Shown here: one piece after another, positions 47,111 through 52,787 of the stretch
Position numbering within the stretch: the first letter of the stretch is position 1
Layout: the number at the start of each line of letters is the position of its first letter
Assembly (NCBI RefSeq): GCF_000417875.1
Contig: NW_006920869.1
Span: forward strand, 1,853,759-1,917,758
Length of the DNA: 64,000 bases
Source: Pseudozyma flocculosa PF-1
Taxonomy: Eukaryota; Basidiomycota; Ustilaginomycetes; Ustilaginales; Ustilaginaceae
Reading direction: 5' to 3'
Notes under the pieces: generated by a model
What the model was told of the DNA's origin: nothing
The model's database searches: none
What the model saw: only the letters and a program-made list of their open reading frames with translations
Program-made: the position numbers and the translations under genes

Positions 47111-50100
47111 CTACGTCTCTGGCTCCTCGCACCGCCGTCGACGACGACGGGGTGCATCGACCAGATCGCAGTCATCCTCGCTGCGTCGATGGTCGAGGAC
47201 CGCATCACGGGTGTTGTCGTCTTCGCCTTCGCCTTCGCCATCGCCCCGTTCTCGCGTCGCAACACAGGGAGGCGGCCACGACTCGGGCCGGATGGTCTGC
47301 TCGAACGGCAACATGACGGTGCTAACCACCGTCAGCTCCGCGTCTGCGATGCGGTCTGCGATGGCCTGAAACTCGTCGGTGACGCCGAGCCGATCTAGAC
47401 ATGCGTACGTCGAGCTGCCGCAGCCGCGGAGATGGAGGATCGTTGTCGAGTGCGCGATACCGTATCGTTGCTCGCAGCCGCTGTACACGATGGTCGCTGG
47501 TGCTCCGGGAGACGGGGACAGGTTGCTGCCACGTCTTCCGAGGTCCATCAGGATCGTCATGTGCGCCGACACCGCTTCACCCGGAACCTCGTAGCTGCTG
47601 GTACCCCCGCTCGTACCCCAGTCAGCTGAGGTCGGAGGTGCGACGATGATGGGCGGACCGTGTAGATGCCTTGCGAGAGTCTGGGCGCTCCGTCGGTGTG
47701 TGACCTGCCATCCAACATAACTCATATGACGCCAGAGGTCAGTCTCATCCTCGACGCTCGACTCGAGTGCTATCCTCCCTCCCAAAAACACGGGCAGCAG
47801 GCCGACGATGCCACCCTGCCGCCGACTGAACTGGATGGCAACTCCGCGTTTCCAGCATAGCCAGAGGTAGCCCTGGCTCACGCCGTCCACGACGTCGTCG
47901 AGCACCGTCATGTGCGTAAAATTGAGCCAGGCCGATTCGGCTTTGCCTCTGAGCTCAGTGGCGACGCTGCCCGTCAAGACGGGTTCGGCGACGAGCGAGG
48001 CGAGGAAGACGTCGAGGCGGATCGGCTCGACATGTGTCATCTCTCGCGCAAGGAGGTCGGGGTGGATCGGCTGCGCGGCGTCGCGGGCCAGGGTGAGCAG
48101 CAGTCTGCCAAGGAACTCGCCGTGACTGCCTCGCAAGTCGAGCTCGCGGCCGAGCGAGAGGAACCGTTCGAGGAGCGTCCTGAGGACCGTCTTCCATGCG
48201 TTGCGGTCTCGCTGGAGGATGTACCCGGCCGCAAGTGCGAGCATGGGCTCGCTTGCCGACGCAGTGACGCAGACGCCATCCCTCCTGAGGTCGCCGAGGA
48301 CGCGCATGTGTCGGCTGACGAGTTCGCGAGCGAGGTGGTTGCCCGCGCTGTCGCATCGCAGCGGGACTAGGTCAATGGCGCAGCGCTGTGAGAGCACCGC
48401 GGCAGCCGTTCGCGGACTGGTGAGGTCGGCGGCTGCTGTCCGGATGGCGGTGAGGCCGGCTTCGTCCCGGGGTGGAGCCAGCTTCGTCACAGCGACTTCG
48501 AGGACCGACGTGTCTCTGCACGCAGCCCACAGAGGTCGACCGTAGAACCGCAGACGGGCGATCTCGAGGGCCTGGATCGCAGCGAGGACGGGAGGAGCCT
48601 CGTCGACCAGTACGTCGAAGCCGAGATCGACCCAAATGGGAAAATGGTGCGGACACCTCGCTCGCGATGACGGACCCTCGTCGTGGGCCGGGAAGACCTC
48701 GAAAACCGCACTGCCGGCGTCGAGGAGCAGGAACCAGAACTGGAAGTGCTCGTTGCCGTGCATCTCCGACATCAACGCTAAGCAGCTGCGAAGGCTGGAC
48801 GACGGGAGGGGACCGCGAGGGGTGTGGGCCGAGTCGAGAAGGGCGAAATCGTCGATGGCCACGTACATGACCACAGGCCGCGTGGAGCCTGCGCGATCTA
48901 GCTGGGACCGCTTCTCCTGGACGGGAGCCGAGGCTCCGATGGTCTGCTCCAAGCGATCCATCGAGGGCTTGAGAAGCCGCATCATGATGCGTCGTAGATG
49001 ATCGGCGCGGCCTATGACGGGAACGGGTTGCTGGAAGTCAGCCTCAGACTCCCGCAGCAGGTTTGCCTGCTTGCAGACTTGTGCAAAGAGGGCTTCGCGT
49101 GTGCCGGGCCTGGCATCGCCAGCCTCGCGGTGCAAGGACCATGCGCCAAGCACCTTGTCCATCGATCTCGGCGGAGGTGTCGAGGGGCTCTTGAGCACGG
49201 CATCGACTTCGGTGAACCAGGCGACAAAGAAGGCGATGAAGGCGAGGTCGGGGCTCGAGAATGCCGCAAATGACTGTTGGAAGAAGTCAACGGTGCTGTG
49301 CTCGGCGACGGGGTAGCCTGATTCGGCTTCGTCTGCTTTGCTGCGCAGCGTTAGGATGAGCGTCGGCCAGAGGTGTCGAAGCTCGTGGACCATGCGGCTC
49401 TTGCCTGTCCCGCTCGATTGGACGATGGGCACGACACGGCCGTATGTGTATCCGGGCCTGTATCTCGGGATATAGTAGTTTGCGATGGCATCGTCGAAGC
49501 GGTGGTGTGCGCTGCCGCGGTAAGGGGCTGCGAACGCCGAGGCGAGCCGCTCCTGATTCTCTTCCCTGCGGTACGACAGCGATGTGGCATCGGTCCTTGT
49601 CAGTCCCGGGGCAATGGTGCGTCAGAGCGAGCGGAGCAAGCACATACCGTCGATCTTTTTCCTGTCCCTGGCTGCTATCTTGTCGAGCTGCGAACCAGCG
49701 AGACAAGAGGTCGACTGCGATCAGTGACCCATCGACGCATGGACGGCACTAGGATGCGGATCGTACTCACGCTGGAAAGCCCGCTCTGCTAGGTGCTCGA
49801 CGACCGAGAAGAGGTCGCGGCTGTGTGACTGTTCGAACATCTGATCGCATATCGACTCGAAACGGGCCTGAGCGACGAGCGGAGCGACGCAGTGCATCGC
49901 TCCGGGACATTGAGTCTCAGAGGCGTCACGGTCGGCACTGGAACGATAAGCCATCGCTCGAAACCAGACGGGGAAGTCGGCATCGTCGATTTGGGGCAGC
50001 ATATCGATACACAGTCCTTCGAGAAGGACCCTCAAGAGAAAGGCCCGACGTTTGGTGCTGCGCATCGCCAAGGCGTCCTGCAACTGTCCGTTGGGAAGAC

Positions 50101-50239
50101 AGATGGCGGGCCGCTGCTCACAGAAGCGACGGAGGGCCTCACCGCGCTGCTCCGGCGGATCACGCGGAGGCAGACCTTGTGTAGCAGAAGCCGTCACTGC
50201 CGACGCTGTTGGAAGCTCGGGAGGCGGCTGGCTGGCCAT
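47111..50239 (-). CDS. Uncharacterised P-loop NTPase with C-terminal nuclease-like region (paralogue A)
   Basis: Three exons: 50239-49771, 49687-49648, 49565-47111; 987 residues. The N-terminal helical part contains VLLEGLCIDMLPQIDDADFP and AMAYRSSADRDASETQ. The Walker A motif in VPIVQSSGTGKSRMVHELRH is at about 219-226, a Walker B-like VVMYVAIDDFALLD at about 391-400 and a sensor-like FQFWFLLLD after it. Later motifs are FPIWVDLGFDVLVDEAPPV, RFYGRPLW, ASEPMLALAAG and RGSHGEFLGRLLLTLARDAA. The last part has WKRGVAIQF, GIVGLLPVFLG and VGWQVTHRR, which sit where I recall related basidiomycete proteins having a GxD...P...QVKN nuclease-like pattern, with the acidic and lysine residues replaced here. 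An Arg6 tract near the end could be nuclear targeting. No signal peptide. Crinkler-like function is a hypothesis; the paralogue next door supports a real family. Confidence 0.7.
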
Positions 50240-51227
50240 GGTGGTGGTTGGAGGCCAGAATGGCCGGTCTCCAAGATCGGACCGCGAGGTCGATGGCGAG
50301 AAGCGACCCAGACGGCTTGTCGTGCAGGACGCGCGGGTGTGCTATTCGGGTTGTGCTGGTGACGCAGACGAGGACGGAGCGAAGATGGCGAGGAAAAGGA
50401 CAACGGATTCTGGCGGCCAGCAGCCAAGCAATGAATGGGGAGACGGAGGGCGGAAGCAAGAAGGGGGCTCGAGCGCACACACGCCTTTCAGATCTGCGGC
50501 AGCCAGGCCTGACCTCAATCGGCCAGTCGGTTGGGACCTGCATCACGGTTCTCGGCAGGCTCGGGCAAGCATGCCCAGTCAGGGGTCCATCGCACCAGAT
50601 CACGGTCACATTCACGTCAGATCAGCCCAGATCTGTCACCGATCACAGCCATACTGGCAGACAGATGAAACTGTCGGCCTTCGAAGCTTTTTCCAACGTG
50701 CACTACGTGTGCAACAAGGCTGATCGTCGAGGAACCGGAAGACGCGAGGAAATAGGTTGGGGGATCGGTATGCTGGGCCGCTGCTGCTTTTAGAAACGGG
50801 GACGTGTGGACACGGATCGACCTGACGGACGCGGGACGCCTTGCGGCGCTGGATGAGTCTGCGCCTGCTTGCTTTTCCTTTTGATGTTGACGATCGGATC
50901 GATGGGAGGCTTGTGCTATTTGCGTCGTGTGCCGCGATAGCCTCGTAGTTGGTGTTGGTGTTGCTGCTTGCTCCTGCTTGTCTGAGATGCAGGTGTCGCC
51001 TGCTTTGCTCGGTGGCGTGGTGCGAGCCGCTGGACGTCGTTGCTTGATCGATGGCCATGCAGGCCGGTCAAGGGCGGATTGCACTGGCGGCTCTCGAGCG
51101 TCGCTTCGCGTCGATGATGTACGTGTTGCTCTCTCTTGGGTGGTGTTGCTGGGCGAGGCGGATGATGCGAGCCTCGTGGCATTCGCCAGTGCTGGGGCTC
51201 GTCTTGAACGTGGACCGCGGAGCCGGC
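50240..51227. other. Intergenic between the NTPase paralogues
   Basis: This 988-nt gap holds the 3' flank of paralogue B and the promoter of paralogue A. I looked for the missing C-terminal half of B here on the minus strand and did not find similarity to the corresponding part of A. No transposon feature was seen. Confidence 0.5.
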
Positions 51228-52787
51228 TCAGGCCCACGAGACGCGGCGGGTTTCCTCGGCGGCTTGGAGGTCAGGGCCGATCAGCAGGAACCAGAACTGG
51301 ACTTCGTCCTCATCCCCGTATACGAACTCGGAGATGAGCTTCAGGACGCGGGAGAGGCGGCGGGAGGCGTCCGATCGGGGGTGCATGCTGTCGAGAAGCC
51401 TGTACCCGTCGATGCCCACGTAGACGACCGTCGGCCTGGATTTGCCCGCGCGGTCGAGCTTGGCCCGCTTAGCCTTGACCGGCTCCAGGCCTTGGATAGC
51501 ATGTGCCAGCTGGTTAATGAGCGGAAAGAGGTGGGACATGATGATGGTGCGGTAGAAGTCCTCAGATACCTCGCGCGATGCCTTCTTCTGGAAGTCGGGC
51601 TCCAAGAGGCGCAGGGTCTCGGCGTAGGTGTAGACCTCGGCGAAGAAGGCTTCGCGGATCTCTTTGTTGACTCCGAGGTCGTCCTCGATGGGCGCCCAGG
51701 GGGCGAAGATATCGCCCATCGACGTCGGCGCACAGGTCGTTCGGAGCACACTGGCGACCTTTTTGAACCACGCGACAAAGAAGGCGAGGAAGGCCAGCTC
51801 GGGACTGCCAAACTTGCGGCAGGAGTTGGTGAAAAAGTCGACGGTGCCCGCCTCGGCGACGGGGTAGCCGATGCTGGGGGTGTTGGCCTGCTCGCTCAGC
51901 GTCAGGATGATCGTCGGCCAGAGGTGTCGAAGCTCGTGGACCATGCGGCTCTTGCCCACTCCGCTCGACTGGACCACCGGCACGGCACGGCCGCAGGCCC
52001 GATTCGCCTCGAACATGGGCGCATAGGTCTTTGCGATCTCGCGGTCGAAGCGCTCATGTGCGCGGTCAAGGTACGGCCTGGTGAAGGCGGCCGCGCTTTG
52101 GTGGAAGCAGTCGCTGTGTTCGGATGGAAGTGGCGTCGCTATGGATCGTCAGTGCCAAATTACCGGGAGGGCGGAAATGGATTCCAAGGGCAAGCACCCA
52201 CCGCTCGTCCTGCGTCTGAAGCCGGATGCTGTTGGCGAAGGCTGTGTTCGTATGCCAGTGATGCTGAAGGTCAGCGGTCTGCCGCGCGATGCGGAACCAG
52301 CGGTATGCCCATGGGACAGTCACGCAGACTCATGCTCAAAGTACTTCCTGGAGAGGAACTCGATGGTGTCGAACAGGTCCGGGTTCGGCACCTCGCGGAG
52401 GAGGTCTTCACAGGCTCCCACGAAGGCGGATGGGTCGAGCAGAGGCGCAGGGCGAATGACGGCCTCAGGCGTACCGTCTGACGGGCTCGACCTGATGTGG
52501 CAGCGATAAGCCAGCGCGAGGAACCAAAGAGGAAAGCCGGGTTTGTCGAGGTGAGGCAGCATAGTGTAGCACATGTGATTGAGGATCCACCACAGCACCG
52601 AGGCTCGCTGCGCATGGCCGGGCATCTCCAACAGCACAGTCGATATGCGGGGCGGCATCAAGGTGGCGGGGTGCTGCAGGCAAAAGCGACGAAGGGCGTC
52701 GCTGCGCTGCTCGGGCAGGGTGAGTGTGCGTTGGGAGGCGGGAGCGGGGGTAGAAGCAGTCGCGTGAGAGGGCTGCTGGGTGGACAT
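51228..52787 (-). CDS. Truncated paralogue B of the P-loop NTPase
   Basis: Three exons: 52787-52324, 52228-52202, 52113-51228; 458 residues. It aligns with paralogue A over about the first 450 residues: ALRRFC motif, HLDKPGFPLWFLALAYR, Walker A in VPVVQSSGVGKSRMVHELRH (about 213-219), GYPVAEAGTVDFF, LAFLAFFVAWF and Walker B-like VVYVGIDGYRLLDS, then stops shortly after VQFWFLLIG. The C-terminal half of A, with the possible nuclease-like region, is missing. The first donor is GTGACT rather than GTGAGT; without that splice the product would end after 154 residues. It could be a working short form or a pseudogene. Exon 2 has only 27 nt. Confidence 0.6.

What the first reader, a model, noticed from the sequence alone, without database searches (positions are those of the whole stretch)
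47111..52787. Tandem pair of P-loop NTPases, one missing its C-terminal half
Two adjacent, same-strand genes share a helical N-terminus, Walker A (VQSSGTGKSR / VQSSGVGKSR), a Walker B-like hhhhID(D/G) motif and a sensor-like FWFLL segment. Copy A continues for about 530 more residues; copy B stops. I know related proteins only as expanded, unnamed families in basidiomycetes. A locus with a full-length NTPase and a short partner could be a lineage-specific defence or conflict system, or simply a decaying duplicate.
Basis: partly seen in the sequence, partly recalled or inferred. Interest (0 to 1): 0.75.

Follow-up and report, generated by a model that had tools for sequence, protein, structure and literature searches.

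The report
Two disarmed fungal NTPase-nuclease gene copies
In a biocontrol yeast related to smut fungi, two neighbouring genes belong to a large unnamed family of ATP-binding proteins that normally carry a DNA/RNA-cutting-type end; in one neighbour the predicted cutting residues are changed and in the other the whole cutting half is missing, so the pair looks like non-cutting relatives of genes whose predicted cutting site is intact elsewhere in the genome.

Summary
Observation confirmed. The window is Pseudozyma (Anthracocystis) flocculosa PF-1. Gene A (50239-47111, minus strand, about 1006 aa, PFL1_00655) and gene B (52787-51228, minus strand, 458 aa) are 41% identical over 444 residues; B stops just after the sensor-like strand. 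Both belong to a family without a Pfam model, expanded in smuts and present in mushrooms: helical header, STAND/AAA+-like P-loop NTPase and a C-terminal domain with a conserved D...(E/Q)xK signature, best read as a PD-(D/E)xK nuclease. PF-1 holds at least 17 loci. New: (1) of 55 members compared, 43 keep Asp and Lys; A is the only one with both replaced (D to V, K to T; two more have a gap and no Lys), yet most of its regions stay about as close to outgroups as intact copies do, so it looks like a retained pseudonuclease; (2) B lacks the GxP-type lid, helical region, nuclease and Walker-B acid, and looks relaxed; (3) contig 18 holds a second short+full tandem pair in the same order, its short copy broken, and the truncations look like separate events (AU p = 0.009). 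An active defence module at this locus is not supported; decay versus regulation is open for B. Nuclease fold and all functions are predictions.

The parts
47111..50239 (-). Gene A (PFL1_00655): exons 50239-49771, 49714-49648 (or 49687-49648), 49595-47111; 1006 (997) aa
   Evidence: intron models by splice-site reading, not by RNA
51228..52787 (-). Gene B: exons 52787-52324, 52228-52202, 52113-51228; 458 aa; the deposited model PSFLO_00022 (447 aa) joins exon 1 to exon 3 and is otherwise identical (first 152 and last 294 residues)
49394..49420 (-). A Walker A QSSGTGKSR
48848..48871 (-). A Walker B VMYVAIDD (Glu to Asp)
48719..48739 (-). A sensor-like strand FWFLLLD
48527..48544 (-). A GxP-type motif YGRPLW (GRP in 53 of 55 family rows)
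47315..47932 (-). A C-terminal PD-(D/E)xK-like domain (approximate limits)
47792..47815 (-). A GGIVGLLP: position of the conserved Asp is Val
47696..47713 (-). A GWQVTH: position of the conserved Lys of (E/Q)xK is Thr
51945..51971 (-). B Walker A QSSGVGKSR
51405..51428 (-). B Walker B VVYVGIDG (acid lost)
51228..51296 (-). B sensor-like strand FWFLLI, 16-residue tail and stop
50240..51227 (.). A-B intergenic stretch (988 nt): no recognisable remnant of the second half; no second copy found in the genome

Best explanation
A and B are diverged members of a basidiomycete family with the plan: helical header, STAND/AAA+-like NTPase switch with a GxP-type lid, helical region, PD-(D/E)xK-like nuclease. 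In an intact member I infer that nucleotide binding through Walker A drives oligomerisation or opening, which positions the C-terminal nuclease on nucleic acid. The window holds two disarmed versions in tandem: A, a full-length pseudonuclease whose scaffold is kept but whose signature Asp and Lys are replaced, and B, a header plus incomplete NTPase core with neither lid, nuclease nor Walker-B acid. A most likely acts as a non-cutting family member, for example a regulatory subunit or binder that can join the copies with intact signatures (C21, C18 full). B is most likely a relaxed by-product of family birth and death, possibly still making protein. Shown by computation: family membership, motif losses, truncation, second pair, constraint pattern. 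Inferred: nuclease chemistry, oligomerisation, regulation.
Confidence: 0.55

Rival explanations
1. Plain birth and death: both genes are by-products of a rapidly turning-over family and neither has a function; A has simply not yet collected stops.
For: PF-1 also holds clearly broken copies: the C18 short copy (Walker A GTGNI, frame change) and the C1:1622k fragment with stops; B shows pseudogene-like dN; A's nuclease domain is slightly faster than in intact copies against P0006.
Against: A has an 836-codon open stretch and evolves like intact copies in core and lid. B's 458-codon frame is open with GC3 0.83 against GC2 0.46; in simulation a neutral frame stays open with P 0.11-0.16 at 0.05 substitutions per site and 0.002 at 0.17, so B was hardly neutral over its whole branch, although it may be neutral since truncation.
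Confidence: 0.33
2. A and B are antagonists: they bind and silence active siblings (C21, C18 full) as dominant-negative subunits or decoys, B through its header and core, A through its full scaffold.
For: A conserved but with signature residues replaced; B keeps header and Walker A; two short copies, apparently of separate origin, each directly upstream of a full copy.
Against: No interaction or expression data; the C18 short copy has decayed; B lacks the last part of the NTPase core and may not fold.
Confidence: 0.2
3. Active two-gene defence or conflict module.
For: Tandem, same strand, related architecture; wider architecture resembles CR conflict proteins described in PMC5289972 (passages).
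Against: A's signature residues replaced, domain absent in B; no PADLOC match; no homologue found by the one pattern scan of bacterial and of viral contigs.
Confidence: 0.06
4. A still cuts, using displaced catalytic residues.
For: PD-(D/E)xK enzymes are known to relocate catalytic residues (recalled, no call).
Against: No other row of the 55 has both positions filled and both replaced.
Confidence: 0.1

Closest known systems
CR (Crinkler-RHS-type) proteins with NTPase + HTH + REase architecture (as described in the review PMC5289972, seen in passages; the primary paper is not held)
   Same: Order of a header, P-loop NTPase, REase-superfamily-like nuclease
   Different: No LxLFLAK motif in A or B, no Pfam match above cut-off in A or B, no sequence link shown; cannot be filed as a member
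STAND/AAA+ switch NTPases (ORC/Cdc6, Avs, RdrA, BrxC, NB-ARC)
   Different: No Pfam NTPase model reaches its cut-off in A or B; a nuclease-like domain at the C-terminus
PD-(D/E)xK restriction-type nucleases (MspJI, McrBC)
   Same: D...(E/Q)xK pattern across the family; top structural matches of the C-terminal model
   Different: Low Z (3.9 and 3.3); in gene A the signature Asp and Lys are replaced; in gene B the domain is absent
Deposited 'conserved hypothetical Ustilaginaceae-specific protein' family
   Same: Smut proteins deposited as related to it are homologues (P0030, P0034, P0036, P0044)
   Different: The label is too narrow: relatives exist in Thecaphora and in mushroom-forming fungi

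Membership tests
P-loop NTPase of STAND/AAA+ type | Walker A loop with GK[ST] | tested here: met
   QSSG[TV]GKS in A and B; Lys at this column in 54 of 55 members
P-loop NTPase of STAND/AAA+ type | Walker B hhhhDE | tested here: inconclusive
   Family: Asp in 54 of 55, Glu in 46 of 55. A has DD, B has DG
P-loop NTPase of STAND/AAA+ type | GxP-type motif in the lid after the core | tested here: met
   GRP in 53 of 55 members, A included; the other two read GRA and GKC. B ends before it. That it equals the STAND GxP motif is recalled, not computed
P-loop NTPase of STAND/AAA+ type | Core fold | tested here: inconclusive
PD-(D/E)xK nuclease | D...(E/Q)xK signature in the family | tested here: met
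   Asp 49 of 55, E/Q 41 of 55, Lys 46 of 55, Asp and Lys together 43 of 55
PD-(D/E)xK nuclease | D...(E/Q)xK signature in gene A | tested here: not met
   IVGLLP and QVTH: Asp to Val, Lys to Thr
PD-(D/E)xK nuclease | Fold of the C-terminal domain | tested here: inconclusive
CR (Crinkler-RHS) proteins | CR header (LxLFLAK) or Pfam match | tested here: not met
   No LxLFLAK in A or B by reading; no Pfam family above cut-off for A or B. The review says CR N-termini without LxLFLAK exist
CR (Crinkler-RHS) proteins | NTPase + HTH + REase order | tested here: inconclusive
   NTPase then nuclease-like domain present in the family; HTH not tested
CR (Crinkler-RHS) proteins | Sequence homology to CR NTPases or nucleases | not tested
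   No CR sequences were fetched; the primary paper is not held
Anti-phage defence NTPase families | PADLOC model match | tested here: not met
   0 matches up to E 0.1 for the 5 proteins given (P0001, P0002, P0029, P0030, L028)

The most novel reading that the evidence does not exclude
A fungal genome keeps a conserved pseudonuclease (A), next to a header-plus-core fragment (B), as in-house antagonists of its own family of STAND-like NTPase-nucleases; the second, independently truncated short+full pair on contig 18 would then be a repeated evolutionary route to such antagonists.
Probability: 0.18. Interest if true: 0.75.

Novelty: new variant of a known kind. Interest (0 to 1): 0.45.

Why it matters
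No Pfam, NCBIfam or PADLOC model that I scanned names the family, and some members are deposited under labels such as 'Ustilaginaceae-specific protein', although it spans smuts and mushrooms, forms at least 17 loci in one 23 Mb genome and has a readable NTPase-nuclease plan. If A is a retained pseudonuclease, it gives a simple entry point: siblings with intact signatures, an unarmed full-length sibling and natural truncations in one biocontrol yeast, in which regulation and turnover of such proteins could be tested directly.

Tried and rejected
Rejected: 'full-length partner with an intact nuclease signature'. Rejected: both short copies descend from one old short paralogue, suggested at first by the shared Walker-B Asp-Gly and the near-shared cut point; a B + C18-short clade is rejected (AU p 0.0087; the grouping was named before the tree but after pairwise identities were seen). 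A+B as sisters is neither shown nor rejected (p 0.53). Local gene conversion between A and B (15 identical codons at Walker A): weak, 843 of 20000 shuffles reach it. The A-B spacer as a repeat: one place in the genome (the tool skips simple repeats).

Led nowhere: Pfam, NCBIfam, PADLOC, PDB by sequence; bacterial and viral contigs by one short pattern (11 pattern matches, 0 confirmed; 0 matches); papers: in the held library no paper holds PFL1_00655 and none holds both 'flocculosa' and 'NTPase'; in the P. flocculosa transcriptome paper PMC6079639 none of four name forms sought (pf00655, PFL1_00655, PFL1_05755, PFL1_05114) occurs in the main text (passages only; supplements not available). PMC9815663 (passages), PMC9933313 (passages) and PMC5811872 (passages) gave nothing on these genes. 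The search with B found only its own deposit, but only 7996 candidates were scored and it did not list the C18 short copy, so it does not show that short forms are absent elsewhere. BLOSUM comparison of B's and C18-short's changes: not significant (p 0.32). B's dN/dS of 1.1-1.6 is unreliable because synonymous sites are near saturation and B's codon usage differs.
Full report
Check of the observation. The two genes are where the finding puts them. Gene A: exons 50239-49771, 49714-49648, 49595-47111; gene B: exons 52787-52324, 52228-52202, 52113-51228; minus strand. Introns were read from splice sites and frame only. A and B are 41% identical over 444 residues. B ends 16 residues after FWFLLI; A continues for 537 residues after FWFLLL.

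Source. A matches PFL1_00655 of Pseudozyma flocculosa PF-1 (98%; the deposited model starts later, 905 aa); the window lies at C1:1853759-1917758 of a 23.0 Mb, 33-contig assembly, and C1 has the same length as the contig of P0001. B is deposited as PSFLO_00022 of the same species; its first 152 and last 294 residues are identical to the window's and only the splice choice between them differs. The two records are therefore too close to measure selection between them.

Family. One protein search gave 28 proteins, the search with B one, a profile search 23, of which three were known: 49 different entries in all (P0001-P0049, B's own deposit included). Each search scored only about 8000 candidates, so these are lower bounds. 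They come from P. flocculosa, Thecaphora frezii, Ustilago and Sporisorium, mushroom-forming fungi (class recalled) and records without a given name. No Pfam model passes its cut-off in A or B, and none is shared by most members of A1, A4 or A5; the most frequent in A1 and A4, AAA_16, touches 4 of 23 and 4 of 21 members, best E 0.029. NCBIfam and PADLOC: 0 matches for 5 proteins each.

Anatomy. Walker A, Walker B, a sensor-like strand, and a GRP motif about 65 residues later (53 of 55 rows) are followed by a helical region and a C-terminal domain with the pattern D-x-(L/I)-(L/I)-P ... (E/Q)xK. Over 55 rows (47 proteins, A included as P0001, and 8 loci; B's deposit, the C18 short copy and its deposit and the C1:1622k fragment left out; L023 and L024 as joined pieces) the Asp is kept in 49 (4 gaps, 1 Glu, 1 Val), E or Q stands at the motif's first position in 41 (10 Arg, 2 gaps, 1 Asn, 1 Ser), the Lys is kept in 46, and Asp and Lys together in 43. 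Ustilago members show the ExK form (WEAKN). A is the only row with both positions filled and both replaced; P0015 and P0027 have a gap at the Asp and no Lys. Single losses occur elsewhere, for example C25:86k and P0040 (Lys).

The family in PF-1. Searches with P0002, B and the C18:178k protein give at least 17 loci: eight near A/B (C1 A, C1 B, C21:434-437k, C18:83-85k short, C18:85.6-88k full, C18:24-26k, C30:106-108k, C1:1622k fragment) and nine of a second branch (C18:178k, C18:154k, C4:23k, C4:52k, C25:86k, C10:545k, C29:10-12.6k, C10:801-804k, C16:633k). Searches with P0022, A's C-terminal piece and P0033 added no locus. The tool calls its counts lower bounds. C21 and C18-full keep DE, Asp and QVK.

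A second short+full pair. On C18 a short copy (deposited as PFL1_05114, P0048) lies directly upstream of a full copy, same strand and order as B then A. It stops matching just after the sensor strand and then carries a tail like that of C21 (0 of 500 shuffles score as high), which suggests an internal deletion; its Walker A is altered (GTGNI) and its frame changes within the core. The full copy beside it has no recognisable header in the 760 bases upstream (best E 0.59). B has no such tail. In a tree of 26 NTPase cores (300 columns), C18-short falls with C21 and C18-full (98/99) and a B + C18-short clade is rejected (p 0.0087); A+B is undecided (p 0.53). Two apparently separate truncations at about the same place, each upstream of a full copy, is the most curious fact here; I cannot tell function from a recombination habit.

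Constraint. On 281 core codons, crude three-point branch dN: A 0.21, C21 0.10-0.15, C18-full 0.17, B 0.27-0.31, C18-short 0.25-0.30; dN/dS about 0.29 for A, 0.29-0.33 for intact copies, 0.57-0.59 for C18-short, 1.1-1.6 for B, all with strong saturation and codon-bias caveats. Conserved columns kept: A 50 of 56, B 41 of 55, C18-short 40 of 56. A's identity to L023 is that of intact copies in core (32% v 30-31%), lid (32% v 32-34%) and nuclease N-part (47% v 45-46%), a little lower in the nuclease C-part (22% v 25-26%); to P0006 it is equal in core (31% v 30-32%) and lid (33% v 31-33%) and lower in the nuclease N-part (36% v 39-42%), C-part (20% v 26-28%) and header (13% v 16% for C21). B's frame was hardly neutral for its whole branch: P(no stop) is 0.11-0.16 at 0.05 and 0.002 at 0.17 neutral substitutions per site, indels not counted. 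So A reads as a retained non-cutting paralogue, perhaps with mild relaxation of the nuclease domain; B reads as relaxed, perhaps recently released.

Context. The pair sits between conserved housekeeping genes: chromatin assembly factor 1 subunit A on one side, a Brix-domain gene and a WD40 gene on the other. The spacer has no second copy in the genome.

Known things. The CR protein class is described in a review I saw in passages (PMC5289972): NTPase with REase makes up slightly more than a quarter of CR C-termini, and toxicity is attributed to the REase part. The architecture here works like that on paper; membership is not shown and the LxLFLAK header is not met, although the review says CR N-termini without it exist. 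The primary paper is not held.

Verdict. A real, well-described tandem pair in a fungal NTPase-nuclease family for which no curated model was found; the new points are the double signature replacement in a mostly constrained full-length copy, the independent truncations, and the breadth of the family. Function is untested.

Noticed in passing
G000:C18:83327-88072 (L022 2328-7088): Second tandem short+full pair of the same family, short copy upstream, apparently built by internal deletion and broken; the full copy has no recognisable header.
   Followed up: yes
G000:C4:22897-25386 and C4:51866-54340 (L028, L027); C18:153984-156593, C18:177563-180256 (L026, L031); C25, C10, C29, C16: A second branch of the family, nine loci, six with open frames of 847-1107 aa; the C29, C10:802k and C16 matches hold stops, which may be introns or breaks.
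   Followed up: partly
window 49343-49442 and 51894-51993: 88% DNA identity over 100 nt at Walker A between A and B, with 15 identical codons in a row; possible local gene conversion, weak support (843 of 20000 shuffles).
   Followed up: partly
G000 contigs C4, C18, C25, C29, C30, C1: Several loci lie within about 100 kb of a contig end; whether this is subtelomeric was not tested.
   Followed up: no
P0030, P0034, P0036, P0044: Smut homologues are deposited as related to 'Ustilaginaceae-specific' proteins although relatives occur in Thecaphora and mushroom-forming fungi.
   Followed up: yes
P0007, P0009, L024, L026, L030: Walker-B Glu is replaced by Asp, Gly or Ser in several full-length members that keep the nuclease Asp.
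   Followed up: partly
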